Of a stretch of DNA of 64,000 nt, positions 30,904-52,007 are shown piece after piece. Position 1 is the first letter of the stretch. The number at the start of each line of letters is the position of its first letter. The notes beneath the pieces are model-generated. The model searched no databases. It had not been told where the DNA came from and saw nothing but the letters and a program-made list of their open reading frames with translations. The position numbers and the translations under genes were made by a program. Source of the stretch: Legionella quinlivanii (lineage in GTDB: Bacteria; Pseudomonadota; Gammaproteobacteria; Legionellales; Legionellaceae); the NCBI RefSeq assembly GCF_900461555.1, contig NZ_UGOX01000001.1:2927501-2991500 (forward strand), written 5' to 3'.

Positions 30904-30928
30904 AAGGGGAGATGTGTGCACTCCCCTT
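30904..30928 (+). terminator. Stem-loop after the bufferin/YceI operon
   Basis: Perfect eight-bp stem AAGGGGAG/CTCCCCTT with a nine-base loop, starting 6 bp after the YHS stop. No U-tract follows, so it may be a processing or attenuation hairpin rather than a strong terminator. Confidence 0.5.
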
Positions 30929-30935
30929 CAAGCCC

Positions 30936-30979
30936 ATCGCTCAATCCATTTACGATGGAATACTTCCGTGATACCGTTT
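30936..30979 (+). promoter_or_regulatory. 44-bp repeat upstream of Gly-rich protein gene (copy 2)
   Basis: Same 44-bp block as at 26,663-26,706 (42 of 44 bases match), in the same orientation and at a similar distance from a start codon. This supports a shared regulatory site rather than chance. Confidence 0.5.
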
Positions 30980-31015
30980 CAACCTGAATTTATTTTTGAA
31001 ACTGAAGGGATTCAC

Positions 31016-33169
31016 ATGTCATCCATCCTCAAACCGCTTGGCGTTTTAGTTTTTTTATTTTCTGCCTGTCATGCAACAGCAGCCATCCGAGTCGTTAATA
31101 GCACTTCAAACGATGCCAACACCATTGGAACCTTGCCTTACTGGCTTTTAAACGCCGACAACGGGGATACTATTGACTGTAGTTCGATTGCCGGACAATC
31201 AATTATATTAAGCGCTTCACTCCCTGCAATTACTAAAAATTATACGATTAATGGAGCAGGAATCACCATCGATGGTGCCAGCAGCTATCAAGCCTTTCAA
31301 ATAGCCGGTGGAAGCACTGTCATTAATAACATCAGGATTCAAAATGCCCTTTCCAAAGGGGGTGATGGCGGCGATGGATATTCGGGTGGAGGAGGCGCTG
31401 TAGGCGGTGGCGGCGCTTTATATATTCATGGAGATAGCTCACTAGTCCTTGCAGCTTCGAGTCTAATTAGTAATACGGCTCGGGGCGGTAATGGAGGAGC
31501 GGCGAATAACAATGGTAATGCCGGCGCCGGTGGAGGCGGAGGGTTTGGAGGTGGAAATGGCGGCAGCTCATTAACTATTGTCTCAACAGGGGGTGGCGGT
31601 GGAGGCCATAGCAACGGCGGAAATGGCGGCTCAAGCTCTTTTGTAAATGGCAGCAATGGCATTTACTTTGGAGGGGGTGGCGGCGGTGCTGGTATTAATA
31701 CTGTAGTGCCCGGCGGCTCAGGCGGCAATGCAAGCCCAACGGGTATATTTGTGGGTGGAGGCGAGTCCGGCGGTAACGGTGGAGGAGGTGCCGGAGACAG
31801 CCAGGATGGCTTTGCGGCCACTGGAAGTGGAGGTTCAGGTATACCTGGAAATGGAGGTAACGGTATTGGAGCTGATTTATTATTTGGAGCTGGCGGCGGA
31901 GGGGGTAGCGCTTCCGAGACTGGTTTCCCCGGCGGAATTGGCGTAGGTGCCGCGGGTGGCGGCGGCGGTTCTAATTTCTCAGGAGGAGCAGGAGGATTAC
32001 TGGGCGGCGGTGGCGGCGGCGGTCTTGGTGCTTTTGGAGGCGAAGGCGGATTCGGGGCTGGCGGCGGAGGAGCTGTAACTGGCGGTATAGGGGGTGGCAG
32101 CTTCAATGCTGGCGGGGGCAATGGCGCCTCAGACCCTAATGGTATAGGAGGCGGCGGTGGCGGTTCCGGGCTGGGAGGCGCGATTTTCATCCAAAGTAAT
32201 AGTACCCTCACTATCATCGACGCTCAACAAATTGCCAATAATAGCGCCATTGCCGGAATTGGCGGTTCCTCAACTAATGAAAGTGATCCTGGCTACATTC
32301 CTCCCGGCGATGGAGCGGCTATGGGCCATGACATCTTTGTACGCGAGCAGGGAACTATTATCTTTAATCTCAGCAATAGCCTGGCCATTGCTACTGCCAT
32401 TGAGGGTGATCAAAGCAACGGGCCCAACACGAGTGGCGGATTGCAAAAGCTTGGAAATGGTATTTTAACTCTTAATGGGGCCAACACCTATTCAGGGCTT
32501 ACTGCGGTAGGTGCAGGCACATTAAATTTGAATGGAAGCGTGATAGGAAACACGGTGATTGGTTCAGGAGGAAGACTTTCCGGTAATGCAACGGTGTTGG
32601 GCAATCTGGCCAGCCTGGGAACAGGAAGTATTATACATAATGACATCACTGCCGCCACTAAGTCTTTAATAACGGTTGCAGGAACGGCATCACTGGCAGG
32701 CATCCTTGAAATCAACTTAGCTCCGGATGCCCAGCCTGGACAGTATATACTGCTTACTTCATCAGGGATAACAGGGGCTTTTAGTTCCGTCAGATTTTCG
32801 GGAGGAACGCCAAATTATTCACTCAGCTATTTACCGGCAGGCGCCCCCACCTATGTGCAATTTAACTTTCTGGGTTACCCCTCCCCCCCTCCTCCGCCCG
32901 TTGAAATACCCGCTACAGTAAACGGCTTACCCATTTTAAATCCTGCCGTTGTTTGCTGCGGCAGACCCGTTATTCTAGGACCGTTACCCGTACCAGGAGC
33001 AGGCCCTACCTTTTATAGTGTCATCAATCAAACGGGAAATGTCCTATGTCAGATTGGGCAGACAGCGTCTCAAACCTATCTGAAGATGCATGGCAAGAAT
33101 GGTTCTTGTACCATTATTGGCAGAAAAGAAGGCGTTAACTCTAATCCTTTACTCGTAATCGCAGCCTGA
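31016..33169 (+). CDS. Secreted Gly-rich repetitive protein with autotransporter-associated beta-strand repeat
   Basis: A 717-residue exported protein. After a signal peptide (LGVLVFLFSACHATAA), a beta-helix-like N-domain covers about 25-110. Residues about 115-385 are almost entirely Gly with Asn, Ser and Ala (GGGGGFGGGNGG-type), and an autotransporter-associated repeat (LGNGILTLNGANTYSG) follows near 480. The C-terminus has a Pro stretch (PSPPPPPVE) and a small Cys-containing domain, but no outer-membrane barrel. Export may use type II secretion. ATG 31,016 follows AAGGGA. The Gly tract is a candidate for strain-to-strain length variation. Confidence 0.8.
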   Translation: MSSILKPLGVLVFLFSACHATAAIRVVNSTSNDANTIGTLPYWLLNADNGDTIDCSSIAGQSIILSASLPAITKNYTINGAGITIDGASSYQAFQIAGGSTVINNIRIQNALSKGGDGGDGYSGGGGAVGGGGALYIHGDSSLVLAASSLISNTARGGNGGAANNNGNAGAGGGGGFGGGNGGSSLTIVSTGGGGGGHSNGGNGGSSSFVNGSNGIYFGGGGGGAGINTVVPGGSGGNASPTGIFVGGGESGGNGGGGAGDSQDGFAATGSGGSGIPGNGGNGIGADLLFGAGGGGGSASETGFPGGIGVGAAGGGGGSNFSGGAGGLLGGGGGGGLGAFGGEGGFGAGGGGAVTGGIGGGSFNAGGGNGASDPNGIGGGGGGSGLGGAIFIQSNSTLTIIDAQQIANNSAIAGIGGSSTNESDPGYIPPGDGAAMGHDIFVREQGTIIFNLSNSLAIATAIEGDQSNGPNTSGGLQKLGNGILTLNGANTYSGLTAVGAGTLNLNGSVIGNTVIGSGGRLSGNATVLGNLASLGTGSIIHNDITAATKSLITVAGTASLAGILEINLAPDAQPGQYILLTSSGITGAFSSVRFSGGTPNYSLSYLPAGAPTYVQFNFLGYPSPPPPPVEIPATVNGLPILNPAVVCCGRPVILGPLPVPGAGPTFYSVINQTGNVLCQIGQTASQTYLKMHGKNGSCTIIGRKEGVNSNPLLVIAA

Positions 33170-34509: not shown

Positions 34510-34737
34510 ACCGCGCATAAAGTGCGGTATCCAGGCAATGCGTCTGATTGGCAAGCATTTTAAAACTCACTACCATTGCTATGGATACCCCGCATAGAGC
34601 GGGGTACGTAGCTCTTACGGTGTACGGAGGTTCTTGCGGAGTACGTAGGTTCTTACGGGGTACGGAGGTTCTTGCGGAGTACGTAGGCTCTTACGGGGTA
34701 CGTAGGTTCTTACGGGGTATATAGATATTTAGGCGGT
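34510..34737. repeat. REP-like two-palindrome element with 19-bp tandem tail
   Basis: Left palindrome ACCGCGCATAAAGTGCGGT, spacer (GCGTCTGATTGGCAAGCATT onward) and right palindrome TACCCCGCATAGAGCGGGGTA. From 34,604 there are about seven units of a 19-bp repeat alternating GTACGTAGGTTCTTACGGG and GTACGGAGGTTCTTGCGGA. Neither palindrome is occupied by an IS. The 700 bp from 34,298 to the start of the biosynthetic operon holds this element and otherwise no gene that I can see. Confidence 0.8.
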
Positions 34738-34994: not shown

Positions 34995-36077
34995 ATGGAA
35001 ATAATAAATACAAAAGATTTCGAGAAGGAGGCTCGACATAAATTAACTCAACCCATTTATGATTTTATCGCTGGAGGCGCCGGCGATGAATATACTATGA
35101 ACAGGAATGTTGAGGCATTCAGACAGATTCAACTTGTTCCCCAAATCTTTAGAAGCAGCAGCCATACCGACACCAGCATTTCCTTATTTAACCATCAATT
35201 ATCACATCCTTTCATGGTGGCCCCTTCGGCATTTCACTCCTGCGTCCATCCAGAAGGCGAAATAGCAACCGTTCGGGCAGTCAATCAAATGGGCATCGCG
35301 ATGGTTCTAAGCACGATGAGCTCGACAAGCCTTGAAGCTGTAGCCAAAGAAGCCACTTGTCCCCTATGGTTCCAGTTATATATTTTTAAAGATCGAAGTA
35401 TTACCCAACAGTTAATCCAAAGAGCTGTCGCAGCGGGGTATACTGCGCTTGTTTTAACGGTAGACGTTCCTATTATGGGAAATCGTGAGCGCGATCAACG
35501 CAATCGATTTAAATGGCAGGCTCCTTTTACCTCAACCCAGGCGATAACATCCGCGTTCCTGACAGAATCCGATGTAAAACAAACAACTGATGCATTATTT
35601 GCATCCGATCTGTCGTGGGATGATATCGAATGGTTAAAAGCACAAACCGATTTACCTATCATTTTGAAAGGGATTATGCATGAAAAAGATGCAGAAATAG
35701 CAATAAACCTGGATATCGCGGCCCTCGTTATTTCAAATCATGGGGGACGGCAATTAGATTATATGCCCTCCACTATGGAGGTATTACCCCCTATTGCCAA
35801 ACAAGTGGCGGGAAAAATACCGTTATTAATTGATGGGGGATTTCGCCGGGGAATTGATGTTTTCAAGGCCATCGCATTGGGAGCGGATTGCATTCTATTA
35901 GGGAGAAGTGTTCTTTGGGCTTTAGCTGTCAATGGAACGGAAGGTCTTAAAAATTTATTTGATTTGTACTCCAAAGAACTAAGTGAAACCATGATTTTCT
36001 GTGGTTGTAAAACAATTAACGATATAAAAATACACGGCAGAAACAGTATTCGTCTACTAAAAGGAAGTTTCTTTTAA
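34995..36077 (+). CDS. hmo: Hydroxymandelate oxidase-like FMN-dependent alpha-hydroxyacid oxidase (Hmo)
   Basis: A 360-residue FMN TIM-barrel enzyme of the lactate/glycolate/mandelate oxidase family. Signatures: YDFIAGGAGDEYTMNRN near the start, FMVAPSAFH, WFQLYIFKDR, LTVDVPIMGNRERD, LVISNHGGRQLDY (catalytic His and Arg, about 247-252) and DGGFRRGIDVFKAIALGAD. In Hpg pathways this enzyme oxidises 4-hydroxymandelate to 4-hydroxybenzoylformate. The function is inferred from the two genes that follow. The ATG at 34,995 gives a family-typical N-terminus; an in-frame ATG at 34,935 would add 20 atypical residues. It is the first gene of the operon and overlaps hmaS by 1 bp. Confidence 0.82.
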   Translation: MEIINTKDFEKEARHKLTQPIYDFIAGGAGDEYTMNRNVEAFRQIQLVPQIFRSSSHTDTSISLFNHQLSHPFMVAPSAFHSCVHPEGEIATVRAVNQMGIAMVLSTMSSTSLEAVAKEATCPLWFQLYIFKDRSITQQLIQRAVAAGYTALVLTVDVPIMGNRERDQRNRFKWQAPFTSTQAITSAFLTESDVKQTTDALFASDLSWDDIEWLKAQTDLPIILKGIMHEKDAEIAINLDIAALVISNHGGRQLDYMPSTMEVLPPIAKQVAGKIPLLIDGGFRRGIDVFKAIALGADCILLGRSVLWALAVNGTEGLKNLFDLYSKELSETMIFCGCKTINDIKIHGRNSIRLLKGSFF

Positions 36078-37120
36078 TGGAAAACATTGATTACATTGAG
36101 CTCTATGTCTCTGATTTAGAAAAATCAGTCGCTTTTTATGAAAGAACATTTCGATTGGTTCCTATAGCCTGTTCAGACCAGGACGATTATTCCTCCGTTT
36201 TGGTTCAACAAGGGTCTATACGCTTAGTGCTTACTTCGGCTAAAAAACCATCCAGCCCTGTCGCTCAGTTTATTGATACTCATGGTGAAGGCGTTAAAGA
36301 TATTGCCTTTTCCACTCCTCAGGTAGAACATCATTATCGCATTGCCATACAAAAAGGATGCCGCTCTGTTTTAGCGCCTTCTTCTTACCCAACAGGCCAG
36401 GAAGTGATCCATAAGGCGACGGTTAGCGCCTTTGGTACAGCCACTCATACCTTTATCAGCCGTACCTCCGAAAATAGCACCACCCTGCCTTTTTTTGAAC
36501 CTATAGAATCAGCAAAAATACAAACTTCCGCATTAAATGCCATTGATCATATCGCCATATGCGTTAATGTGGGTGAGGTCGACAGTTACGTTAATCAGTA
36601 TATTGATACCTATGGTTTTAAACAGTCACACGAAGAACAGGTCATTACAAACTACAGCGGAATGAAATCCAGGGCAGTCCAATCAGCGAATGAACAGATA
36701 AAAATTGTCTTTGTTGAACCTGTTACCGGTTTAAAAACATCGCAGGTTGCAGAATTTCTTCAGCAATTTGGCGGCCCGGGAGTACAGCATATTGCCTTTT
36801 CCACAGAGGATATTGTTTCTTCAGTACAACAACTTCGAGCGTCTGGTCTGGAAACATTAGCTATCCCGAATGAATATTACAATACGCTTCCTGTCAAAGA
36901 GAGCGACTGCCGAATACTTCGTCAGCATTCTATTTTGTTTGATACCAACGAGCAAGGTTCACTTTATCAAATATTTTCAAAATCTGTGGTAGCCCGCGCC
37001 ACACTATTTTTTGAAGTCATTCAACGGGTAGGCTGTACTGGTTTTGGCAGCAATAATATCAAAGCGCTTTTTCAGGCCATAGAACAGGAGCAATTTAAAC
37101 GTGCAACTGCGCTCATGTGA
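36077..37120 (+). CDS. hmaS: 4-hydroxymandelate synthase (HmaS), HPPD-like Fe(II) dioxygenase
   Basis: A 347-residue vicinal-oxygen-chelate protein that should turn 4-hydroxyphenylpyruvate into 4-hydroxymandelate. Iron ligands are read as His in IDHIAICV (about 157), His in GVQHIAFST (about 236) and Glu in FFEVIQRVG (about 311); the C-terminal GFGSNNIKALFQAIE is also typical. It could be an HPPD instead, but the usual LNEP substrate motif of HPPD reads VFVEP here, and the flanking hydroxymandelate oxidase and aminotransferase favour HmaS. It overlaps the aminotransferase start by 20 bp. Confidence 0.8.
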   Translation: MENIDYIELYVSDLEKSVAFYERTFRLVPIACSDQDDYSSVLVQQGSIRLVLTSAKKPSSPVAQFIDTHGEGVKDIAFSTPQVEHHYRIAIQKGCRSVLAPSSYPTGQEVIHKATVSAFGTATHTFISRTSENSTTLPFFEPIESAKIQTSALNAIDHIAICVNVGEVDSYVNQYIDTYGFKQSHEEQVITNYSGMKSRAVQSANEQIKIVFVEPVTGLKTSQVAEFLQQFGGPGVQHIAFSTEDIVSSVQQLRASGLETLAIPNEYYNTLPVKESDCRILRQHSILFDTNEQGSLYQIFSKSVVARATLFFEVIQRVGCTGFGSNNIKALFQAIEQEQFKRATALM

Positions 37121-38297
37121 ACATCTGAAATTAGCTGATTGGGTGAAGAACAATCCTCCTTCCGTTATGGAGGAATTACTCGCTGGCTCGTCTAAAGAAC
37201 AATGGATTTCCCTCGCCTTAGGCCTGCCGGCTGCTGCATTATTTCCAACGCATTTTATTGAAGAAGCCTTTGAGGATGTGCTGGCGTTAAATCATTCAGT
37301 ATTCCAATACCAGCCTCCTTTAGAAGAATTAAAATCGCATGTAAAACATATCATGGCCCTGCGCGGAGTACAGTGTCATGAAGATCAGATTTTATTAACC
37401 GCGGGTGCTCAGCAAGGGATTAGTTTAATCACACGATTATTACTAGAAGCACAGAGCAGAGTTGCCCTGGAAAAGCTCGCCTATCCAGGTTTACTGCAAG
37501 CATTAAAACCGTTTACACCAGACATCCTGACGATTAACACTCATATGAAAACGGGCATTGATCTGGATGAGGTGGAGACTGCGTTTAAAAGAAAGCGGCC
37601 AGCTTTTCTGTATCTGGTCGCTGATGGCGGCAATCCTCACAGCCTTACTCTTAATGACGAACAACGTAAAAAACTAGCCTACCTTGCCGCAGAGTATGAA
37701 GTGCCCATTATTGAAGACGATCCCTATGGGTTTTTAAATTATCAACAACCCAGATCGCCTATAAAAAAATACGCGGATGACTGGGTCTTCTACATAGGTT
37801 CTTTTTCTAAACTTTTGGCTCCTGCATTACGCGTTGGCTGGATAGTTGCCCCCCAATGTACGATGCGCCATTTGTCCTCATTAAAAGAATGCAGTGACAT
37901 TAATACAGCGAGCTTTAATCATCATCTTGTTAATGCTTTACTCAATAAAAATATATTTGAATCACAGATTCAAACATTACGAAACTACTATGCAAAACAG
38001 CGAGACTGCCTGGTAAATTCTTTAACACAGTATTTAACGTCTGACATCACATTCAGCATTCCTGAATGTGGCTTTTTTATTTGGGCGTACTTTTTGGAAA
38101 AAATAAATACAAGCCGTTTACTGCAGGAATCACTCAAACAAAACGTGGTTTTTGTTCCCAGTGAAGCCTTTGCAGTAACCCCTGACAGCACTATCTACAA
38201 TGGCATGCGCTTAAATTTTTCTTATCCCAGTGAGTATGAAATTGAAGAGGGCATAAAACGTTTGAGCCTATCCCTCCAGGCATTAATCAAGGAGTAA
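37101..38297 (+). CDS. hpgT: PLP-dependent aminotransferase, HpgT-like (4-hydroxyphenylglycine transaminase)
   Basis: A 398-residue fold-type I aminotransferase (MocR/2-aminoadipate aminotransferase subfamily, without the GntR domain). Motifs: LALGLPAAALFP, LTAGAQQGISLI, DGGNPHSLTL, EDDPYGFLNY and the PLP Lys in IGSFSKLLAPALRVGW (about 235). Downstream of HmaS and Hmo it should aminate 4-hydroxybenzoylformate to L-4-hydroxyphenylglycine, as HpgT does in glycopeptide clusters. The GTG start lies within the end of hmaS, with GGAG upstream. carA follows after 4 bp. Confidence 0.8.
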   Translation: MQLRSCEHLKLADWVKNNPPSVMEELLAGSSKEQWISLALGLPAAALFPTHFIEEAFEDVLALNHSVFQYQPPLEELKSHVKHIMALRGVQCHEDQILLTAGAQQGISLITRLLLEAQSRVALEKLAYPGLLQALKPFTPDILTINTHMKTGIDLDEVETAFKRKRPAFLYLVADGGNPHSLTLNDEQRKKLAYLAAEYEVPIIEDDPYGFLNYQQPRSPIKKYADDWVFYIGSFSKLLAPALRVGWIVAPQCTMRHLSSLKECSDINTASFNHHLVNALLNKNIFESQIQTLRNYYAKQRDCLVNSLTQYLTSDITFSIPECGFFIWAYFLEKINTSRLLQESLKQNVVFVPSEAFAVTPDSTIYNGMRLNFSYPSEYEIEEGIKRLSLSLQALIKE

Positions 38298-38301
38298 CCC
38301 G

Positions 38302-39825
38302 ATGGGAATTTATTATTCATTTGTTGCTGTATCGAGGAACAATAGCGACGATTTACTTGAAATATCTTCAAAAACTTTAGAACCTCACATCATTATTAAT
38401 ACAACGTCCTGGAGTTTTTTATTTAAAGGACAGAGCAAGCTCCCAGTTCAGAATGTTCTACATAGCCATGGCTCTTACGATTATTTTTTCATCGGTGAAG
38501 TATATAATGTGGCCGAATTGAGGGTTCTTCTTGCCAGGTATTCATCCAATGCTTTGACCTGCGCTATTCCTGAACTGCTTTATCTTTTATATGCTTTTCA
38601 CGGAAAGCAAGCCTTTTCTCTGGTTGATGGCCCATTTACATTTATAAAATGCCGCGATAAAGAATTAACAGTCATTACAGACGCTCTCGGCTGCCTGCCG
38701 GTCAATGTCATTTTTAACTCCTCTGTCTGGGTGAGCTCTGAGTTAAAAATGCTTGCTAAAACAAAAGCGGTTCAATTTGATTTTATTGCGCCAGAACAAT
38801 TAATCGCGATTGAAAATAAAAGCGATGATTTCTTGCCAATTAAAAATGTCCGAAAAATAAAGCCTGGACAAGAATTCAGCATTCATTGGGACGGCCAGAA
38901 TCACCCCTATGTTAATGCAGTTGACTTATGTACCTTGGCCTTGGGCAGAGATCAAAACATGGAAGCCGCGGAAGCCAGCCGCATCGTATTTCAGCTTATT
39001 GATAATTCATTACAGAATTGTATTCAAAATTAATCGCATATTTCCTTACCCCTCTCAGGCGGTATCGATTCAAGCCTTATTGCCGCATTGATGGCCAAAA
39101 AAGTGGAACACTTCAGCACTTATTCAATAGGCAGTGAAGAAAATAATGAATTTCCGTTTTCAAAAATTGTTGCAGACCATTTAAATACAAGGCATCAGGA
39201 ATTCATTTTATCTAATAACGATATTATGAGAGGTATAATTGAAGCTATTTTTTATAATGAAATATTTGATGGCCTCTCCGCTGAAATTCAATCGGGCTTA
39301 TTTAATTTATATCGATTAGACGCAGGAAAAAGCAGTGCCATGGTCACAGGCTATGGAGCTGATTTAATTTTTGGAGGGGTATTAGATCACACATGCTCCG
39401 CTGAACGGGTTAATCAATTATTATGGGAACAAATATACAGGACTCGCTGGACAGGAGAGTTTTCAAACTTTGGCGCTTTACACTATGGAATAAAAATTAA
39501 GCATCCATTTTGGAATCTTAAATTAATCAGTTATTGCTTGAATTTAGATCCCTCACTCAAACTCGCGAGAGGCGAAGTTAAAGTATTCGTTCGTGATCAT
39601 CTGCATAGTCAACAATTGCTTCCAGATGCAATAACCTGGAGGAAAAAAATCGGTATTCATGAAGGCTCATCAAAGAATAAAATTTTTGCTCAGCTAATTG
39701 GAGTGGACACTGCCAATTATGAAGCAAAATCCCTGTTTAGTTACGAATTATACAAGCGTTTTTTAACTGGAAGCCCGATTCCTGAATCCTTGATGACTTC
39801 CGATTTTCGTCAATTAGTAGCCTAA
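38302..39825 (+). pseudogene. carA: CarA-like beta-lactam (carbapenam) synthetase with in-frame TAA
   Basis: An asparagine-synthetase-fold enzyme of the beta-lactam synthetase family. The frame is continuous for 507 codons except for one TAA at 39,031-39,033, in the linker between the N-domain and the synthetase domain. After it, in the same frame, comes the PP-loop ISLPLSGGIDSSLIAAL, then FYNEIFDGLSAEIQSGLFN, GYGADLIFGG, YRTRWTGEF and WRKKIGIHEGSS. These match CarA of carbapenem producers very closely, from memory. The N-domain lacks a catalytic Cys (starts MGIYYS), as in CarA. No start codon precedes the PP-loop in the second half, so activity would need stop readthrough. A C-to-T change (CAA to TAA) would explain it. 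Confidence 0.8.
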
Positions 39826-39833
39826 GGATTATA

Positions 39834-40595
39834 ATGACAAATTTAGTATCTATTGAAGACAGAGCGGATATTCGCATACTGACTTTTAATCACCCCAACC
39901 AGCATAATCCGTTTAATAATGCTTTAGAAAATGCAGTAATCGATGCATTAGAAGAAGCAGACAAAGCACCACAGATTAATGCGGTGGTGGTCTATGGAGG
40001 AAAAAATCGTTCCTTTAGCGTCGGTGGTGATTTCAATGAGGTAAAACTTTTTACCGGCGGAGAGGATGTTGAACAATGGATTGATAGAATTATTAATCTA
40101 TATTTAGCAGCGCTTAACCTTAAAAAGCCAAGCATTGCCTGTTTAGATGGTTTCTCAATCGGGATTGGTTTTCAGCTGGCTATGATGTTTGATTGGCGCA
40201 TCATGGCGGACACGGGTGTTTTAATCATGCCTGAATTAAAACACGGAATAGGATGCACCATTGGAGCGGCCATCCTCTCTAAAGTATGTGGTTACAACGC
40301 AATGAAAGAGATTATTTATGGTTGTGAACCTATTAATCCAGAACGCGCATTGGTCTATCAATTGATTAATGAAATTCATCCCGCGGAACAGGCTTTGGAG
40401 CAAGCTGTATCACATGCAAAAAAAATGTCAGCTTACTCGCAGGTTTCTTTTCAAAATACAAAACGTGCTATCAATAAACCCATGATTGAAGCGCTATTAC
40501 GTACGGCTGAAGAATCTAAAAATACCCATAAGGCATGTTTTGCTAATAAAAGCGCAGAACAGCATTTCATCAAAATACTTGGCGAAAAATATTAG
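39834..40595 (+). CDS. carB: CarB-like carboxymethylproline synthase (crotonase)
   Basis: A 253-residue crotonase that closely resembles CarB: HPNQHNPF, VVVYGGKNRSFSVGGDFNEV (oxyanion-hole Gly), MPELKHGIGCTIGAAIL (catalytic Glu near 132) and NTKRAINKP, ending in LGEKY. CarB decarboxylates malonyl-CoA and adds the enolate to pyrroline-5-carboxylate. The whole length and C-terminal ending agree, so this is more specific than a generic enoyl-CoA hydratase. TAAGGA precedes the ATG; the carrier-protein ATG follows the stop directly. The real electrophile in this pathway is unknown. Confidence 0.85.
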   Translation: MTNLVSIEDRADIRILTFNHPNQHNPFNNALENAVIDALEEADKAPQINAVVVYGGKNRSFSVGGDFNEVKLFTGGEDVEQWIDRIINLYLAALNLKKPSIACLDGFSIGIGFQLAMMFDWRIMADTGVLIMPELKHGIGCTIGAAILSKVCGYNAMKEIIYGCEPINPERALVYQLINEIHPAEQALEQAVSHAKKMSAYSQVSFQNTKRAINKPMIEALLRTAEESKNTHKACFANKSAEQHFIKILGEKY

Positions 40596-40877
40596 ATGAA
40601 TACCCAGCAATTCAATACCCTTATAGCGGATGAAGAGATACCGGATGGACTTATCGATTCATTGCAGAAATGTTGGTTAGAGCTATTCAATTCTACAAGT
40701 ATCGATCTCAATGAATCATTCTTTCATTTAGGCGCCGATTCTATCACTGTATTGAAGCTGCTCTTTCGTATCCAACAACAATTCGGGATCCGCTTAGTTT
40801 TCAGGGATATTTTTGAAAACCCAACGATAAATTTACAGGCACATTTAATTAAATGCAAAACGCATGAATTATCATAA
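40596..40877 (+). CDS. Stand-alone peptidyl/acyl carrier protein
   Basis: A 93-residue carrier domain. The phosphopantetheine site is FFHLGADSITVLKLL, with Ser near residue 50. The tail FRDIFENPTINLQAHL is typical of PCP helix 3. The start codon directly abuts the carB stop. It needs a 4'-phosphopantetheinyl transferase encoded elsewhere and loading by an adenylation domain; the only one in this window is in the NRPS at 42,449. It may carry Hpg or another acyl donor for that NRPS. Confidence 0.88.
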   Translation: MNTQQFNTLIADEEIPDGLIDSLQKCWLELFNSTSIDLNESFFHLGADSITVLKLLFRIQQQFGIRLVFRDIFENPTINLQAHLIKCKTHELS

Positions 40878-40940
40878 TGAATATTGACTAAAAGGCAGTA
40901 ATTTAACATGAAGCATTGCAGCACAAATACCGGGAGAAAA

Positions 40941-42434
40941 ATGAATACTAGCCCAAAAAATCATCCAAAATCATTGCGCGTTTTCTTCGCAACCGAGATG
41001 TGGGAGCGTTACGGTTTCTACGTGATACAAACCTTGCTGGCACTTTATCTTGCAAAACACTTTAATTGGAATGATAAAGATATTTATGCTCTTGTAGGTT
41101 CCTTTACAGCTCTCACTTATGTTTCGCCGGTTTTAGGCGGCTGGGTTGCCGATAAACTACTTGGCCAGAAAAGAACGATCATTACTGGAGGGATTATCTT
41201 ATTCTGTTGCTATTTACTATTGGGATTTATCGATTCCAACTTTAGCTTACTCTGTTCTTTAGCAGGGATTTCCGTTGGCACAGGTTTATTCAAGCCTAAT
41301 ATCTCCTCTTTGCTCGGCAATGAATATGCAGATGACTCCAATCAAAGAGAAAACGGGTTTACCATTTTTTATATGGGCATCACTCTGGGGATCATTTTTG
41401 GCTGTACTTTTCCAAACCAATTGACCTACTATTTTGGATGGCCTGTGTCATTTATTAGCGCAGCCATTGGCATGCTATTTGGATTACTAGTCTTTGTTTT
41501 GGGCATTATTAAATATCAGATAGACGATTATGCCGCCTACGAATATTCATTTAAAAATATTCTATTAGCAGCTCTGGTAGTGGTGGTTTTATGGTTGGCC
41601 TCGTTTTTTATTCTGACCTACACAACCTTAGCCAATTTTGCATTTGCCGGCATTGTACTGCTCTCAGCGGGTTATTTTGCATACACAATAAAAGAACAAT
41701 CATCCTATGATGCACGAAAAACAATAGTCATTAGCTTGTTATGCATTATTTCCATTATTTTTTGGGCTTTTTATTTTCAAATGTTTTTGTCATTCACTTT
41801 GTTTATTGCACGAGTGGTGAAACAAAACTTATTCGGATTACACTTCCCTCCACCTTATTATGTGAGCATTCAAAGTTTTGGCGCGATTGTGTTTGGTCTG
41901 TATTTATCTCGACGGAAATATAATGCCGTAACCCGGCATGCAGGGATTCAATCAGCGAATAAATTTCTATTGTCGATGTGTTTTATGACCGCGGCCTTTT
42001 TATCGCTAACCCTTATCTGCAGAACCAGTGAAAACGACCTGCTGTTATCCCCCCTGCTGTTTATTCCTATTTACCTAATGATCTCGTTAGCGGAATTATT
42101 GTTATATCCGATTGGACTTTCAATTGTCACCGTGCTCGCACCCCGTAAAAAAGTAAGCACCATGACAGGCATTTTTTTCGTCTCCCTGGGGGTCGGAGGT
42201 TTTCTGGCCGGGAAGTTAGCTGAATTAGCAGCTGTACCCCATCAGGAGTTATCTTTGCCGGTATTAAAAGCCTATTATGCCTCTGGCTTTAGTACGATTA
42301 CCTGCTTATTGATAGCCGCTCTTTTTATATGCTTTATTTTGAATCGGCTCATAAAACGCTTGCTATCTAATGCCCCTGCAGAATATCAAAGTGCTGGAGA
42401 TCATTTCGCTGAAAGTCAGATTGAAGCGTGTTGA
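40941..42434 (+). CDS. POT/PTR-family proton-coupled peptide transporter
   Basis: A 497-residue membrane protein with about 12-14 helices. The ExxER proton-coupling motif appears as FATEMWERYGFYVIQTLLALYL; GGWVADKLLGQ and FTIFYMGITLGIIFG are POT family motifs, and the second PTR signature region is also visible. Start is ATG 40,941 (GGGAG 4 nt upstream); an ATG at 40,908 is possible. Inside the biosynthetic operon it is probably the export or import system for the peptide-like product or its amino-acid building blocks. Direction cannot be read from sequence. Confidence 0.85.
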   Translation: MNTSPKNHPKSLRVFFATEMWERYGFYVIQTLLALYLAKHFNWNDKDIYALVGSFTALTYVSPVLGGWVADKLLGQKRTIITGGIILFCCYLLLGFIDSNFSLLCSLAGISVGTGLFKPNISSLLGNEYADDSNQRENGFTIFYMGITLGIIFGCTFPNQLTYYFGWPVSFISAAIGMLFGLLVFVLGIIKYQIDDYAAYEYSFKNILLAALVVVVLWLASFFILTYTTLANFAFAGIVLLSAGYFAYTIKEQSSYDARKTIVISLLCIISIIFWAFYFQMFLSFTLFIARVVKQNLFGLHFPPPYYVSIQSFGAIVFGLYLSRRKYNAVTRHAGIQSANKFLLSMCFMTAAFLSLTLICRTSENDLLLSPLLFIPIYLMISLAELLLYPIGLSIVTVLAPRKKVSTMTGIFFVSLGVGGFLAGKLAELAAVPHQELSLPVLKAYYASGFSTITCLLIAALFICFILNRLIKRLLSNAPAEYQSAGDHFAESQIEAC

Positions 42435-42448
42435 TACAGGAGAACAGT

Positions 42449-45400
42449 ATGGCTGCATCTGGTTTACAGACACTTGAACTCTCAACCGCTCAAAGAAACA
42501 TGTGGCTTCTTAATGCATTGGATAAGGAAAATACCTCCTATGTCATTACTTTAGCTTATGAGCTCGAAGGTCCGCTTAACCTTCGGGCCTTAGAGCAAAG
42601 TATCGAGGTGGTCTGCGAGAGACATCCTCTCTTAAAAAGCTACTATCCCTCTGAAGAGGGAGTGCCGGTTAAAAAGCAGGATTCGGCACTTCAAATTAAA
42701 CTTGAGCAGATGGATCAATCTTCCTTTGGGTTTTCAGATAATGAAATCCTCGATTATGTCAATCAATTAGCCAATCGTGTCTTTGATATTAGCAAACCGC
42801 CGCTTATTCGATTTTGTTTGATTAAGTGCTCCGAACAAAAGCATGTTCTCATTTTTTCCATGCATCATATTATTTCCGATGGATGGAGTTTGGGGATATT
42901 ACTGAATGATTTGAGTGAAGCGTATAATGCGTATAGTTCCAATAGAACGCCAGGTTTTAGCCGGAACTTAAGCACTTATGAGGAATACATCCAACACCAT
43001 GATTTTTCTCGTTTAAGTGAGACAGAGCGTAAAAAGATTCAATCCTATTGGCAGGAGCATCTTGATGGCTATGAAGTGGTCAACTTCCCCTATGATAATT
43101 CCAGGCTGCCGACCCAACAATTTAAAAGCAAGAAGTACGAGGTTTTCATTGATCTCAATACAACTATGGCCCTGGAATCATTGTGTGTAGAGCATTCAGC
43201 GACCCTTTATATGGGCTTAATGACTCTCTTCTGCCTCATTTTAAAACGTTATACAGGCCAAAATGATCTCATCTTGGGAACACCAGTATGTAATAGACCT
43301 GCTCCAGAATTTGAACACACGGTCGGTTTATTCGTTAATTCTCTGGTTGTTCGACTGAAATTTCAAAAAAATCCCAGTTTTATTGAGGCCTTGGCTGTCG
43401 TCAGAGAAGAAATGCTCCAGGGGCTTGAACACCAGGATATGCCTTTTGACAAACTGGTTGAGTTGATAAGCCCTGAGCGCACTATAGGGAAAAATCCCAT
43501 TTTCCAGACCATGTTTGCCTTACAAAATGCATACAACAATACCCTGGATTTTAATCATATTCATTGCACAGAACTTTTATCCGATACCGCTCTCTCCCGA
43601 TTTGATCTGGAATCCGTTTTTTGGCGTACCGCCCAAGGGATAAAATGGCGAATCGTTTATAACGAACATCTGATATCCGATCGAAAATGCAAAGCCATGG
43701 CCGAGCATTTTAAAAATATTCTACAGGACATTATTCAGACACCGACAAAACCATTAAATAGCATTGCCTATTTAACTAAAAGCGAAGCAGATTATATCCA
43801 ATGCATTTCGCAGGGCGCTTCCAGCATTCCGGATAGCATTTCCTGCATTCACGAACTCATTGAACGAAATGCAGGTATCTGGAGTAATAAGCTGGCAATT
43901 AAACAATGGGAAAATGACCGCTTAACTTACCAGGAGCTAGATACCCAATCTTCGCAATTAGCCAGAATTTTATTCAAGAAATATTCCACAACTGACGAAC
44001 AAATTCGAGTCGCTGTACGAATGAAACCTGGAGTGGAATTAGCGATAACATTACTAGCCATTTTAAAAGCGGGAATGATCATTATTCCATTGAATTACGA
44101 TGATCCAGAGGAGCGTATACACGCGATTATTAAAAGCGCCAATACGGATGTGGTCATTGTGGACGGCCTCAGGATGAACATCCCTGAATGTATTACTTAT
44201 GACTCACTTTATGCGCTTTCAATCACCTCTCAGCTACAGCTTGTCTTGCCCAAAGTATCTCCTGAGACACTCGCCTATATTATTTTTACCTCAGGAACTA
44301 CAGGGGATCCCAAAGGGGTAATGATTGAGCATAAAAGTTTAACCAATACTTTACTCGCCTGTCAGAATGCCTTTATGTTCAATGAAGCGGATGTTTTTGC
44401 CTGTGCCTCCGTCTTTGCCTTTGACATCTTTTTCTTTGAGTTTTTTGCTGCATTAATTGCCGGGGGAACCACTTATTTTATTAATAAGATGGAGCTGCTG
44501 GATCCAGAAATAATTAGCCTTATTATTCCAGAAATTACCTGTATGCATCTGGTTCCAGGTGTCGCTCATAGTGTAATCAATTTACTCCAGGCTCATCACC
44601 TGTTTTCATCCCCGACTATGCGCCATTTTGCAACAGGAGGCGATTTAGTTAACCAAAATCTGCTGATAGAGCTTAGAAAACAATTTCCTAATGCCGAGCT
44701 TAGCGTGTTATATGGCCCCACTGAAACGGCTATTCTTGCATCGCGCTATATAGTTAACAGCCAAAACTGGGATGGGAAACATCCGATCGGTAAGCCGCTG
44801 GATAATACGATTATTTTAATTGCGGATGATGCAGGTAATCCGCAGCCTATTGGCATTCCTGGCATGCTCTATATTGGCGGTCCTGGTGTTTCACGCGGCT
44901 ATATCAATGCACCCGATTTAAATCAGGAAAAATTTGTTAGCATCCATAATGAGCGCTATTTTAAAACTGGCGATATTGCACAATGGCTTCCCAATGGAAT
45001 CATTGATTTCATAGGAAGGAGCGATAATCAAATAAAAATCAGAGGTCACCGTATTGAGCTCGGTGAAGTGAACGCATGCCTTAATTCCTATCCAGCGGTA
45101 AAAGAGGCAATCGTTTTAGTCGATATGGCAGAGAACCATAAACAGTTAATCGCTTATGCTGTTCTAAAAAAAGAAGGTCCAACGCAGGAAATACTGCAGG
45201 CACTTAAGTCTCATTTGCAATCAAAACTACCCCATTATATGGTCCCCAATACCATTGTTATTTTAGATAAGTTGCCGTTAACCAAGAATGGTAAAATAGA
45301 TAAAAAAGCTTTGTCAGCTTGTAGACCGATCGTTTCATTGGATGAGCATTCAAATCAGGCACTCAATGCAGTGGAACATATTGTTCATCAAGTGTTTTGT

Positions 45401-46801
45401 CAGGTTTTGAACTTAAAACAAATGAGTGCCGACGCCAATTTCTTCGATATGGGCGGCAACTCTCTGTTATCAATTCAGGTGGTGATTAAATTAAGGCAAA
45501 AAAATTTCTTAATTAAACCGCAGGATTTATTTAAATATCAGAGCATTACGGCACTTAGTAAGGCGATTCAACAGGTACATCCAACGCCAATAATAAAGTC
45601 AGAAGTGGATTCCAAACAACATTCTACAGTCCGCTATAAAGACCAACCGGGTATAAAAAACATTTTATTGCTCGGCAGTACTGGCTTTTTAGGTATACAT
45701 CTTTTAAATCAACTCGTGAATTGCAATGTACGCATTTACTGCATTATCAGAGGAACTGCAGAACAAACCTCGTTAATGCGTTTAAGAGCGCTTTATCAGT
45801 TTTATTTTCCTGAAGAACGAAATGCGCTGCTTTTTAATAAAATCATTGTATTAGATGGCGATATTAGCTTTCCTGATTTTAAACTGAGCCGAGATAAATA
45901 TACAGAGTTAACAAATACAGTCGATACCATTATTAATGCGGCCGCGAATGTGAACCATATTGGGCCAAAAGAAAATCTGACGTCGGTGAATGTCGATGGG
46001 ATCCGAAATCTAATTAATTTATGTACCCTTGGCTGTGCCAAAACCCTGCACCATATTTCCACTGTCGGCATTAAGGGTTTATATAAAGAACAGCCGCTTG
46101 TTTTTGATGAAAGCATGCTTCATGTGGATCAAATTCATACCGAACAATATTCTGAAAGTAAATATGAAGCAGAGTTACTGATTCATCAGTATATGCAGCA
46201 AGGCGGGCAAGCAAATATCTATAGAGTGGGAACGATAGGACCTCATTATCACAGCGGATCGTTTCAAAAAAATATAGAGCAACATTTCCTTTCAAGATAT
46301 ATTCATTCAACTATTCAATTAGGTTTAGCCGGCTGCTGGCAGGATGAAATCCTTGATATTACCCCTGTGGACAGTTTGGCAACAGCCATCACCCTGTTCG
46401 TATTTAATTCGCAATATATCAACAAAACCTTTCATCTCGTATCACCTGACACCATTTCTTATTATGAATTGGTCAGATTTTTACAAAATTGCGGTTATCC
46501 GATACGAATGATTGACAACCAGGAATTTAAAAACAAACTATTTTCCCTCAATCATTCAGAACAAGGTGAACAGGCATTAACAGGGATCATTCAACTTCTG
46601 GACAGCCATGAGTCACCTCATAACCAATTAAGCTGCGAGTCGACAACTAAAACCCTGCTTTTTTTGGAGTACCATTATCCTGAACTGACCAGCCGCTATT
46701 TAAGCAAATTCATGCAACATGGCATTCGTCGGAATTATTTTCCCAAGCCATGCTATTGGGATGAATTAATCAGCTATCCCGCTTTAACCCTTAATTCGTA
46801 A
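42449..46801 (+). CDS. Nonribosomal peptide synthetase, C-A(Hpg?)-T-R
   Basis: A 1,450-residue single-module NRPS. The condensation domain has MHHIISDGWS (His near 138). The adenylation domain has FTSGTTGDPKG (about 612), YGPTETA (about 754), GRSDNQIKIRGHRIELGE and LTKNGKIDKK (about 942). My hand-read specificity pocket is D-I-F-H-F-T-L-I-L-K, whose first four residues equal the recalled Hpg code (DIFHLGLLCK). The carrier site is FFDMGGNSLLS (Ser near 1,005). A terminal reductase domain has the NAD(P)H motif LLLGSTGFLG (about 1,071) and YSESKYEAE catalytic Tyr/Lys, so the chain should leave as aldehyde or alcohol. AGGAG supports ATG 42,449. Confidence 0.92.
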   Translation: MAASGLQTLELSTAQRNMWLLNALDKENTSYVITLAYELEGPLNLRALEQSIEVVCERHPLLKSYYPSEEGVPVKKQDSALQIKLEQMDQSSFGFSDNEILDYVNQLANRVFDISKPPLIRFCLIKCSEQKHVLIFSMHHIISDGWSLGILLNDLSEAYNAYSSNRTPGFSRNLSTYEEYIQHHDFSRLSETERKKIQSYWQEHLDGYEVVNFPYDNSRLPTQQFKSKKYEVFIDLNTTMALESLCVEHSATLYMGLMTLFCLILKRYTGQNDLILGTPVCNRPAPEFEHTVGLFVNSLVVRLKFQKNPSFIEALAVVREEMLQGLEHQDMPFDKLVELISPERTIGKNPIFQTMFALQNAYNNTLDFNHIHCTELLSDTALSRFDLESVFWRTAQGIKWRIVYNEHLISDRKCKAMAEHFKNILQDIIQTPTKPLNSIAYLTKSEADYIQCISQGASSIPDSISCIHELIERNAGIWSNKLAIKQWENDRLTYQELDTQSSQLARILFKKYSTTDEQIRVAVRMKPGVELAITLLAILKAGMIIIPLNYDDPEERIHAIIKSANTDVVIVDGLRMNIPECITYDSLYALSITSQLQLVLPKVSPETLAYIIFTSGTTGDPKGVMIEHKSLTNTLLACQNAFMFNEADVFACASVFAFDIFFFEFFAALIAGGTTYFINKMELLDPEIISLIIPEITCMHLVPGVAHSVINLLQAHHLFSSPTMRHFATGGDLVNQNLLIELRKQFPNAELSVLYGPTETAILASRYIVNSQNWDGKHPIGKPLDNTIILIADDAGNPQPIGIPGMLYIGGPGVSRGYINAPDLNQEKFVSIHNERYFKTGDIAQWLPNGIIDFIGRSDNQIKIRGHRIELGEVNACLNSYPAVKEAIVLVDMAENHKQLIAYAVLKKEGPTQEILQALKSHLQSKLPHYMVPNTIVILDKLPLTKNGKIDKKALSACRPIVSLDEHSNQALNAVEHIVHQVFCQVLNLKQMSADANFFDMGGNSLLSIQVVIKLRQKNFLIKPQDLFKYQSITALSKAIQQVHPTPIIKSEVDSKQHSTVRYKDQPGIKNILLLGSTGFLGIHLLNQLVNCNVRIYCIIRGTAEQTSLMRLRALYQFYFPEERNALLFNKIIVLDGDISFPDFKLSRDKYTELTNTVDTIINAAANVNHIGPKENLTSVNVDGIRNLINLCTLGCAKTLHHISTVGIKGLYKEQPLVFDESMLHVDQIHTEQYSESKYEAELLIHQYMQQGGQANIYRVGTIGPHYHSGSFQKNIEQHFLSRYIHSTIQLGLAGCWQDEILDITPVDSLATAITLFVFNSQYINKTFHLVSPDTISYYELVRFLQNCGYPIRMIDNQEFKNKLFSLNHSEQGEQALTGIIQLLDSHESPHNQLSCESTTKTLLFLEYHYPELTSRYLSKFMQHGIRRNYFPKPCYWDELISYPALTLNS

Positions 46802-46817
46802 CTGCTCACCGCCTACG

Positions 46818-46837
46818 TACCGCGCTTATGCGCGGTA
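46818..46837. repeat. REP-like palindrome, single left-type copy
   Basis: TACCGCGCTTATGCGCGGTA, a perfect palindrome with a shortened loop, between the NRPS stop and the aldo/keto reductase start. It could end or process the NRPS operon transcript. Confidence 0.7.
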
Positions 46838-46894
46838 TCCCGTGTTGGTAAAAGAGTAGTTACCCTTAATCAATAATTTGTAAGGATATTCATT

Positions 46895-47890
46895 GTGGAA
46901 TACAGGCAATTAGGTAAATCAGGACTTCAGGTCAGTGTACTGGGTTTAGGCACATGGACTACGATTGGTGAACGGCTTGATTTAAATGCCTCCAAAGCGG
47001 TATTAGATTGCGCGTTTGAGCAAGGCATCAATTTTTTTGATACGGCAGATGTCTATAATAATGGGCAGTCAGAGCGTGTTTTGGGGGAATTATTAAACTA
47101 TTTTAACTGGCCCCGTGAAGCGTATGTCATTTCCAGTAAAGTATTTTTTGGATTAGGAGCTAATCCAAGGCCCAATACCTATGGCTTAAGCCGTAAACAT
47201 ATCATCGAGGCCTGTCATGCCTCTTTAAAGCGCCTCAATCTCGAGTATCTGGATCTGTATTTTTGCCACCGTCCCGATCCGAATACCCCTCTTTTAGAAA
47301 CCGTGCAGGCAATGAGCAGCTTAATCCATCAAGGCAAGATATTGTATTGGGGAACCTCTGAATGGACCGCGGCTCAATTATTGGAAGTGTACCAGCTTAC
47401 AGAGAATAATTCCTTTCTTATTCCCCCTATCTCAGAGCAAAGCCAATATAACTTATTTGCTCGCGAGCGGGTTGAGAATGAACTAACGCCTTTATATGAG
47501 AGTCATGGTTTAGGAATTACCGTCTGGTCGCCTTTGCGTTCAGGATTACTTGCTGGCCGATATAATAATGGCGTCCCCCCCGACTCAAGACTTGCGGCTA
47601 AAGAGAATGAAGCCTCACGACGGGAAGTAATGGGACACAATGAGGACGAGCGCATCTTCCTTGTGAACCAATTGACAGACTATGTACAACAGGAATTAAA
47701 CATCAGTTTAGCGGAGCTTGCATTAGCATGGTGCCTTAGAAATAAAAGCGTATCTTCCGCAATCATAGGGGCATCGACTGCCAGTCAAATTATTGATAAT
47801 TGCAAAGGGATCTCTTTTGCAGAAACAATGAATACCGGCATTATGCGAAAGCTGGATGACATTATGCTGAATAATGTGTACGCGACATAA
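46895..47890 (+). CDS. Aldo/keto reductase (Kv-beta-like)
   Basis: A 331-residue NADPH-dependent reductase. Family signatures: LGLGTWTTIG, FFDTADVYNNGQSE (catalytic Asp and Tyr), ISSKVFFG (Lys), YLDLYFCHRPDP, and SAIIGASTASQI near the cofactor site. It matches the voltage-gated K channel beta/YghZ-like subfamily. GTG start at 46,895 follows AAGGA. It is the same orientation as the NRPS, about 90 bp downstream across a REP palindrome. It may reduce an aldehyde released by the NRPS reductase domain, but could equally be unrelated. Confidence 0.82.
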   Translation: MEYRQLGKSGLQVSVLGLGTWTTIGERLDLNASKAVLDCAFEQGINFFDTADVYNNGQSERVLGELLNYFNWPREAYVISSKVFFGLGANPRPNTYGLSRKHIIEACHASLKRLNLEYLDLYFCHRPDPNTPLLETVQAMSSLIHQGKILYWGTSEWTAAQLLEVYQLTENNSFLIPPISEQSQYNLFARERVENELTPLYESHGLGITVWSPLRSGLLAGRYNNGVPPDSRLAAKENEASRREVMGHNEDERIFLVNQLTDYVQQELNISLAELALAWCLRNKSVSSAIIGASTASQIIDNCKGISFAETMNTGIMRKLDDIMLNNVYAT

Positions 47891-50080: not shown

Positions 50081-50457
50081 TTACACCACGCTATTAGAAA
50101 CAGAATGGCCTGCTTTGTATTGCTCAAGCATTTCATTCCAAAGCAATCGAATATTAGAACTTGAAATAGGGATATTGCTTGCCCGTGCAGTTAGGAAACC
50201 AGCTTGCTCACATGAATTCACGAATGAAAATAGTCCATCAAAATATCCATTAATATTTAAAATACCAATGGGTTTTGTTAATTCTCCAATTTTTATTGCA
50301 TTCCATGTCTCAATTGCTTCTTCTAACGTTCCAAGGCCGCCAGGCATCACAACAAACATATCAGATATTTTTTGCATCATAGCCTTACGTTGCTGCATGG
50401 AGTCTACAACATGTAATTCGTCTAATATTTTTAAAGGCTTTTCTTGTTCGAAAAGTC
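50081..50457 (-). pseudogene. LOG-family nucleotide hydrolase, copy 1 (5' truncated)
   Basis: C-terminal two thirds of a LOG-family protein (TIGR00730, cytokinin-type phosphoribohydrolase): EQEKPLKILDELHVVD, then MPGGLGTLEEAIETWNAIKIG with the family PGGxGT-x-x-E motif, and the normal C-terminus to a stop at 50,081. The N-terminal Rossmann part is missing: homology to copy 2 ends near 50,457, where the plus strand turns into the DUF1998 remnant. About 88% identity to copy 2 over 66 shared residues (my count). Confidence 0.7.
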
Positions 50458-51998: not shown

Positions 51999-52007
51999 TA
52001 GTTCAAA

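What the first reader, a model, noticed from the sequence alone, without database searches (positions are those of the whole stretch)
34995..47890. Hybrid biosynthetic cluster joining an Hpg pathway, a CarA/CarB beta-lactam pair and a C-A-T-R NRPS
Seen: tightly spaced or overlapping genes for hydroxymandelate oxidase, HmaS-like dioxygenase, HpgT-like aminotransferase, CarA-like synthetase, CarB-like crotonase, a carrier protein, a POT transporter and an NRPS ending in a reductase domain. Known: Hmo, HmaS and HpgT make 4-hydroxyphenylglycine in glycopeptide and nocardicin producers; CarB and CarA build carbapenam in Pectobacterium and Photorhabdus. I know of no described cluster that combines both modules with a reductive NRPS, least of all in Legionella-like bacteria. 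Inference: the locus makes a new Hpg-containing peptide with a beta-lactam or related strained ring.
Basis: partly seen in the sequence, partly recalled or inferred. Interest (0 to 1): 0.95.

Follow-up and report, generated by a model that had tools for sequence, protein, structure and literature searches.

The report
Hydroxyphenylglycine and carbapenam hybrid gene cluster
A Legionella-like bacterium carries one tight gene cluster that joins the enzymes for an unusual amino acid (hydroxyphenylglycine) to relatives of the enzymes that make carbapenem antibiotics, but the gene for the ring-closing step is cut by a stop codon in this sequence.

Summary
The genes are real. Hmo, HmaS and HpgT form an overlapping triplet. 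HmaS carries the Ile that marks hydroxymandelate synthases and falls with them in a tree (99/96); the genome's separate HPPD carries Phe. CarB is a true relative of carboxymethylproline synthase (50% to PDB 2A7K). CarA's C-terminal half keeps the catalytic residues and groups with CarA (100/100). The NRPS is C-A-T-reductase; its A-domain code, DIFHFTLILK, is near the recalled Hpg code. As sequenced, beta-lactam closure is doubtful. The Hpg triplet is not unique: 8 of 140 family genomes have it; carB was found in 1 of 143. CarA/CarB beside adenylation genes also occurs in Nocardia, Streptomyces, Rhodococcus, Acinetobacter and Oxalobacteraceae loci, each with a CarC-like dioxygenase and a ligase, both absent here. 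Hpg plus CarA/CarB plus a reductive NRPS was seen, among the loci examined, only in this window. Best reading: an operon for an Hpg-containing, reductively released small peptide that also makes carboxymethylproline, with the carbapenam step interrupted or recently lost.

The parts
34995..36077 (+). Hmo-like FMN-dependent 2-hydroxyacid oxidase
   Evidence: Pfam FMN_dh 417.6 bits; Hmo 5ZZP 254.9 bits but glycolate oxidase 286.5, and a lactate oxidase chain with two matched stretches 455.1 in sum; 38-42% to full-length ORFs in stretches around HmaS in other bacteria
36077..37120 (+). HmaS (4-hydroxymandelate synthase)
   Evidence: best PDB 2R5V; FGSNNIKAL with Ile at the HPPD F337/F364 place; tree with HmaS
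37101..38297 (+). HpgT-like PLP aminotransferase
   Evidence: Aminotran_1_2; hits the same NCBIfam models (PdxR, MocR types, MppQ, GntC), all below cut-off, as 4 aminotransferases near HmaS elsewhere
38302..39033 (+). CarA N-terminal piece (glutaminase-like domain), ends at in-frame TAA
   Evidence: Pfam CarA_N 59.3 bits, cut-off 21; stop at 39031-39033
39034..39825 (+). CarA C-terminal piece (synthetase domain) in the same frame after the stop; first ATG/GTG/TTG is at 39088
   Evidence: 1Q15 CarA 272 bits for 39088-39822; SGGIDSS and Tyr345, Glu380, Lys443 equivalents kept; CarA clade 100/100
39834..40595 (+). CarB-like carboxymethylproline synthase
   Evidence: 2A7K 284 bits; Gly62, Trp79, Gln111, Glu131, His229 kept, Met108 is Ile
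40596..40877 (+). free-standing carrier protein; start abuts the carB stop
   Evidence: PP-binding 51.9 bits; gap 0
40941..42434 (+). POT/PTR2-family transporter
   Evidence: PTR2 141.8 bits; TIGR00924 231.8, above its 130.2 cut-off
42428..46801 (+). NRPS, C-A-T-reductase
   Evidence: Pfam domains; HH...DG, TSG..G.PKG, GG.S, G.TGF.G motifs; A code DIFHFTLILK; NCBIfam TIGR01746 200.9 bits, just under its 213.35 cut-off
46895..47890 (+). aldo-keto reductase, probably part of the cluster
   Evidence: Aldo_ket_red 225.6 bits; no match at E<=1e-60 in the 10 other genomes of the genus

Best explanation
A biosynthetic operon. HmaS, Hmo and HpgT turn 4-hydroxyphenylpyruvate into L-4-hydroxyphenylglycine (shown at the level of family, residue, tree and gene order; activity inferred). 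CarB makes (2S,5S)-carboxymethylproline from malonyl-CoA and pyrroline-5-carboxylate (family and residues shown; activity inferred). The NRPS activates Hpg, joins it to an acyl group carried by the free-standing carrier protein, and releases the product by reduction as an aldehyde, which the aldo-keto reductase may reduce to an alcohol (inferred). The acyl group is most simply carboxymethylproline or its carbapenam (inferred, weakest step). CarA would close the carbapenam ring, but as sequenced it is cut by a stop before its ATP-binding motif, so this step is probably lost or impaired in this strain.
For: CarA/CarB scores, residues and CarA tree. HmaS residue and tree. Hmo/HmaS/HpgT overlap here and lie together in 7 of 7 other family loci read; in 10 HmaS-type loci of the order of Nocardia nova an Hmo match lies in the 19 kb stretch in 9 and an HpgT match in 8 (two of the Hmo matches, L060 and L062, are partial and 8-9 kb away). 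A code DIFHFTLILK shares 6 of 10 with DIYHVTLLCK of the NRPS gene next to HmaS in L053 and 6 of 10 with the recalled Hpg code. Near-continuous operon. P5C source: one proline dehydrogenase match, in a 1059-residue open frame, in the genome. CarB chemistry: passages of PMC6542682.
Against: carA is interrupted. No adenylation enzyme for the free-standing carrier protein and no CarC-like dioxygenase in the operon, although 5 of 8 comparator loci have a ligase and 7 of 8 a dioxygenase. NCBIfam's 4HPPD model accepts HmaS above cut-off, 328 against 277 bits. By score Hmo is nearer glycolate oxidase than Hmo. The A code differs from the recalled Hpg code at 4 of 10 places, and only 4 of 12 other HmaS loci with an extracted A domain show the D-I-x-H pattern. 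The first CarA tree, with long rows in it, had weak support. The two modules could feed two products.
Confidence: 0.55

Rival explanations
1. A decaying cluster: it once made a carbapenam-Hpg compound, carA was hit by a nonsense mutation, and the rest is drifting. (This overlaps with the best explanation, so the odds do not add to one.)
For: One in-frame TAA in carA; the cluster is found in 1 of 143 family genomes by carB at E<=1e-35; transposase remnants lie 6-10 kb downstream.
Against: The other eight genes are open and the motifs examined in CarB, the CarA C-piece and the NRPS are kept; only one stop inside the 508-codon carA frame, against 28 and 46 in the other two frames. A recent event or an assembly error fits as well.
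Confidence: 0.3
2. Two separate products from one operon: CarB (with or without CarA) makes free carboxymethylproline or carbapenam, and the Hpg-NRPS makes its own reductively released compound.
For: No adenylation domain other than the NRPS's own is in the operon; CarA/CarB stand without an NRPS match in G822 and without an annotated NRPS in Pantoea; Hpg triplets stand without CarA/CarB in the 7 of 7 other family loci read.
Against: carB abuts the carrier-protein gene with no gap; in Nocardia, Streptomyces decoyicus and Oxalobacteraceae CarA/CarB sit with carrier or NRPS genes.
Confidence: 0.25
3. The carrier protein is loaded with malonate and CarB works on it, leaving carboxymethylproline on the carrier for the NRPS without any ligase.
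For: carB and carrier gene abut and no separate ligase is present.
Against: CarB keeps Glu131 and His229, which I recall as linked to thioester hydrolysis; no acyltransferase in the operon.
Confidence: 0.06
4. Ordinary paralogues (HPPD, enoyl-CoA hydratase, asparagine synthetase) wrongly read as biosynthetic.
For: NCBIfam calls HmaS 4HPPD.
Against: Scores, residues and trees.
Confidence: 0.02

Closest known systems
Carbapenem cluster carA-carB-carC-carD-carE of Pectobacterium type (here G822 L021 and Pantoea sp. At-9b L101; the cluster name is recalled)
   Same: CarA C-piece 53% (L021) and 57% over its first 206 residues (L101); CarB 50% and 46%; same order carA-carB
   Different: those two have a TauD-type dioxygenase, proline dehydrogenase and 2Fe-2S protein after carB, absent here; carA interrupted here; Hpg genes and NRPS added here
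CarA/CarB with adenylate-forming ligase in Nocardia nova (L007), Streptomyces decoyicus (L102), Rhodococcus fascians D188 (L105), Acinetobacter indicus (L104), Oxalobacteraceae BJB404 (L006); NRPS genes too in L007 and L102
   Same: CarA/CarB pair with adenylation or carrier genes
   Different: each has a TauD-type dioxygenase and a ligase; the CarA C-piece is 53% to L006 but only 23-28% to the other four; no Hmo, HmaS or HpgT match in the stretches
Hmo-HmaS-HpgT pathway of glycopeptide and related clusters (loci L053-L062; Streptomyces sp. NBC_01435 L106)
   Same: same three enzyme families, Hmo and HmaS genes overlapping by 4 bases in 6 of the 10 loci
   Different: HmaS 34-38% only; no CarA or CarB match in these stretches
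Hpg triplets of the window's own family (G044, G057, G059; G077, G124, G125, G133)
   Same: same gene order; 48-58% in three, 30-40% in four; a C-A-T-reductase NRPS about 8 kb from the triplet in G125
   Different: no CarB at E<=1e-35 in the 142 other family genomes searched
Nocardicin (Hpg plus beta-lactam; recalled)
   Same: Hpg plus a beta-lactam idea
   Different: there a condensation domain of the NRPS closes the ring (passage of PMC11298585); here a CarA-type ATP enzyme would

Membership tests
4-Hydroxymandelate synthase (HmaS) | Ile in place of HPPD Phe337/Phe364 in the last helix | tested here: met
   FGSNNIKAL; HmaS 2R5V and 3ZGJ FGSSNIKAL; own-genome HPPD FGEGNFQAL. F337I effect: passages of PMC3739788. 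3ZGJ is labelled HPPD in the PDB table; that it is an HmaS is recalled
4-Hydroxymandelate synthase (HmaS) | groups with HmaS and not HPPD | tested here: met
   20-row HmaS side against 12-row HPPD side, 99/96, 32 rows
4-Hydroxymandelate synthase (HmaS) | makes 4-hydroxymandelate | not testable with these tools
   no assay
Hpg pathway | HmaS, Hmo and HpgT genes together | tested here: met
   overlapping triplet; shared NCBIfam fingerprint of the aminotransferase
Carboxymethylproline synthase (CarB) | closest to CarB, active-site residues kept | tested here: met
   284 bits to 2A7K, 169 to 5O34, 84 or less to the others listed; Gly62, Trp79, Gln111, Glu131, His229 kept, Met108 is Ile
Carbapenam synthetase (CarA) | ATP motif SGGxDS and Tyr345/Glu380/Lys443 | tested here: met
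   C-terminal piece, alignment with G822 CarA; residue numbers recalled
Carbapenam synthetase (CarA) | one intact reading frame | tested here: not met
   TAA at 39031-39033
Carbapenam synthetase (CarA) | groups with CarA in a tree | tested here: met
   with L006, L021 and L101 at 100/100 against 5 Asn-type rows; in the first tree, with very divergent rows (L003, L004, L007, 1JGT) in it, only 81/91 with L021 and 1Q15 and deeper forks open
Carbapenem cluster | CarC-type Fe/2OG dioxygenase | tested here: not met
   no TauD-type domain among the 10 protein pieces of the operon
Reductive-release NRPS | C-A-T followed by NAD(P)-dependent reductase | tested here: met
   NAD_binding_4 150.9 bits and motifs; TIGR01746 just under cut-off
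Hpg-activating A domain | Hpg specificity code | tested here: inconclusive
   DIFHFTLILK, positions set by hand from motifs, 6 of 10 against the recalled code; that code was not found in the paper library

The most novel reading that the evidence does not exclude
The operon makes a new class of molecule, a carbapenam or carboxymethylproline acyl group joined to 4-hydroxyphenylglycine and released as an aldehyde or alcohol, with CarA either working as two chains, read through its stop, or intact in the real genome.
Probability: 0.2. Interest if true: 0.9.

Novelty: new variant of a known kind. Interest (0 to 1): 0.6.

Why it matters
Each module is known, but the mix was seen in no other locus examined here. 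If the product holds both parts, it would be a beta-lactam or proline-derived peptide with an aromatic non-protein amino acid and a reactive end group. The work also shows an Hpg triplet in 8 of 140 genomes searched in the window's bacterial family. The cut in carA makes a clear, testable question: lost antibiotic step or assembly error.

Tried and rejected
Rejected: HmaS as the genome's ordinary HPPD (a separate HPPD exists at G000:C1:1242334-1243239). CarB and CarA as ordinary ECH and AsnB. A working restart after the carA stop: the codons from 39034 to 39087 hold no ATG, GTG or TTG; the first, TTG 39088, lies after SGGIDSS; ATT at 39040 is the only rare start before the motif that I saw, with no clear ribosome site by eye.

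Led nowhere: naming the organism through the first 20 kb of its second contig (3822 plasmid records matched, none with 80% cover; the ten listed share heavy-metal genes); promoter scan (25 sites, 39.1 expected; terminators 14, 12.6 expected); Rfam at gathering threshold (only a tRNA); paper searches for the Hpg code (0) and for carboxymethylproline synthase with nonribosomal peptide (0).

Weak points: the genome-contig scan uses six short peptides and returned only 2 loci, so absence there means little. MIBiG and antiSMASH were not available. No structure was predicted. Genome samples were drawn, not complete. Rows dropped: L011 and L013 gave no SGG-type motif by my pattern and were left out of the CarA tree (2 of 9 Asn-type candidates); for I further left out L003, L004, L007, 1Q15 and 1JGT because of long branches or partial rows, and used only a 206-residue piece of L101. 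For the HmaS tree I used 8 of the 20 Phe-type loci, 10 HmaS-type loci of that order and the 7 other family loci. The A-domain pattern was loosened twice: 2 domains, 18, 28, the window's included each time. Of 12 HmaS-bearing loci with an extracted A domain (L053, L060, L062, L094) had a D-I-x-H code; L054 to L059, L091 and L092 had none, though their NRPS genes are partly outside the stretches. CarB tree: CarB rows apart from two ECH rows at 94/92, with no starred branch.
Full report
What is there. Nine + strand genes from 34995 to 47890 (ten open stretches, carA being in two) are nearly continuous: Hmo-like oxidase, HmaS, HpgT-like aminotransferase, CarA in two pieces, CarB, a carrier protein, a POT transporter, a C-A-T-reductase NRPS and an aldo-keto reductase, the last after a 93-base gap. 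The window lies in a 3.6 Mb genome in 2 contigs, 100% complete by the tool.

Hpg module. HmaS scores best against HmaS 2R5V, then HPPD 1T47, 214 against 200 bits. At the place where HPPD has Phe (S. avermitilis F337, human F364; passages of PMC3739788) it has Ile, like 2R5V and 3ZGJ. The genome's other family member, at 1.24 Mb, has Phe. In 298 genomes of the order of Nocardia nova, 170 had a match at E<=1e-50; of the 30 loci fetched, the best-scoring ones, 9 had Ile, 1 Val and 20 Phe at that place. In a 32-row tree the window protein joins three family proteins (100/98), and these join the HmaS side, split from HPPD at 99/96. Against this, NCBIfam's 4HPPD model accepts it, and at the next helix place it has Phe like HPPD, where 2R5V has Tyr and 3ZGJ Ala. 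In 19 kb around ten loci (nine Ile, one Val), an Hmo match lies in 9 of 10 and an HpgT match in 8 of 10. Four of those aminotransferases hit the same NCBIfam models as the window's.

The Hpg triplet is shared in the family. Of 140 family genomes, 8 including this one have HmaS at E<=1e-42. The 7 others, read in stretches, have Hmo, HmaS and HpgT together in the same order, with one extra ORF in G077. Three are 48-58% identical and four 30-40%. All seven have Ile at the marker place. In G125 a C-A-T-reductase NRPS of 1471 residues lies about 8 kb from the triplet; in G059 and G057 no other window protein matched in the stretches read. The genomes other than this one in the 143-genome search had no CarB at E<=1e-35.

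CarB and CarA. CarB is 50% identical to 2A7K over 246 columns and keeps the active-site residues Gly62, Trp79, Gln111, Glu131 and His229; Met108 of the oxyanion hole (PMC6542682 passages) is Ile. The CarA C-piece keeps SGGIDSS and the Tyr345, Glu380 and Lys443 equivalents (numbers recalled). The N-piece matches CarA_N at 59.3 bits, above cut-off; an intact CarA of G822 scores 125.7. With the long rows removed, the C-piece groups with three CarA rows at 100/100 against five asparagine-synthetase-type rows; with them in, support was weak. In 369 genomes of the class, CarA_N rings in 8: this one at 59.4 bits and 7 at 19.9 to 24.9 bits in open frames of 591 to 647 residues, which look like asparagine synthetases. 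In 398 genomes of the phylum, CarB at E<=1e-40 was found in 2, this one and G822.

The stop. The carA frame is open from 38302 to 39825 except for TAA at 39031-39033; the other two frames hold 28 and 46 stops. The stop lies between the two domains. After it no ATG, GTG or TTG occurs before 39088, past the ATP motif. The gene is therefore most simply read as interrupted. Whether this is real, recent or an error cannot be told here, because one genome per species is held.

Comparators for CarA/CarB. G822 (L021) and Pantoea sp. At-9b (L101) have the carbapenem type with dioxygenase, proline dehydrogenase and a 2Fe-2S protein. Oxalobacteraceae BJB404 (L006), Nocardia nova (L007), Streptomyces decoyicus (L102), Acinetobacter indicus (L104) and Rhodococcus fascians (L105) have a dioxygenase and an adenylate-forming ligase near CarA/CarB; L007 and L102 have NRPS-type genes. 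Bradyrhizobium L103 has CarB-like genes without a listed CarA and without a CarA match (that gene table is incomplete). So of 8 loci, 7 have the dioxygenase and 5 the ligase; the window has neither. None of the 8 gave an Hmo, HmaS or HpgT match at E<=1e-6 in the stretch held. The genomes of L006 and L007 hold one HmaS-family match each at E<=1e-8, both with Phe. The plasmid search found 10 of 72,556 records with CarB at E<=1e-25; I read the surroundings in 5 of them.

How it may work. Hpg is made by the first three enzymes. CarB makes carboxymethylproline, with pyrroline-5-carboxylate from the genome's single proline dehydrogenase match. The NRPS A domain reads DIFHFTLILK (code places set by hand from motifs, numbering recalled). 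A module of the NRPS next to HmaS in L053 reads DIYHVTLLCK, and one in the G044 family locus reads DIWHLCLIEK. These share D-I-x-H and Leu at the seventh place with the recalled Hpg code DIFHLGLLCK. The A domains extracted from G125 and G124 do not, nor do those of the 6 loci L054 to L059. The condensation domain would take its donor from the free-standing carrier protein, whose gene abuts carB. What loads that carrier is unknown. Release by the reductase domain gives an aldehyde; a monomodular NRPS with a reductase end, predicted to give an aldehyde or alcohol, has been reported in Legionella (PMC5126622, section 17 and passages read).

Literature. A search for Legionella with hydroxyphenylglycine gave one unrelated paper (listing). 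Other searches (listings only: 20 of 196 shown, none, 20 of 34, 10 of 134, 10 of 107) showed no described cluster of this make-up. The library lacks most subscription journals, so this is weak evidence that it is unpublished.

Verdict. Its most striking step, beta-lactam closure, is interrupted in this sequence.

Noticed in passing
window 34599-34719: Tandem repeat, 38-base unit, 3.2 copies, about 280 bases upstream of Hmo.
   Followed up: no
window 50081-53501: By eye only, minus-strand ORFs 53190-53501 and 50081-50500 look like two ends of one LOG-family gene with about 2.7 kb between them; an ORF there (50115-51998, +) resembles part of a DUF1998-type defence protein.
   Followed up: no
window 53841-54299 and 57792-58970: Transposase remnants: HTH_21/rve piece and a DDE_Tnp_1 gene.
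   Followed up: partly
window 30914-33169: Very glycine-rich 751-residue ORF with no Pfam or NCBIfam match at E<=0.001.
   Followed up: no
L091 215-16178 (G125): A different Hpg-linked cluster: FAD-binding oxygenase, formyltransferase with AMP-binding part, A-T-ketosynthase protein and C-A-T-reductase NRPS.
   Followed up: partly
L086 and L087 (G059, G057): Hmo-HmaS-HpgT triplet with no NRPS match in the stretches read (L086, L087, L098); use unknown. G057 has a reductase-type NRPS on another contig (L095).
   Followed up: partly
L006 9152-9928: A second CarB-like crotonase beside CarB in which Glu131 and Gly62 are not kept.
   Followed up: no
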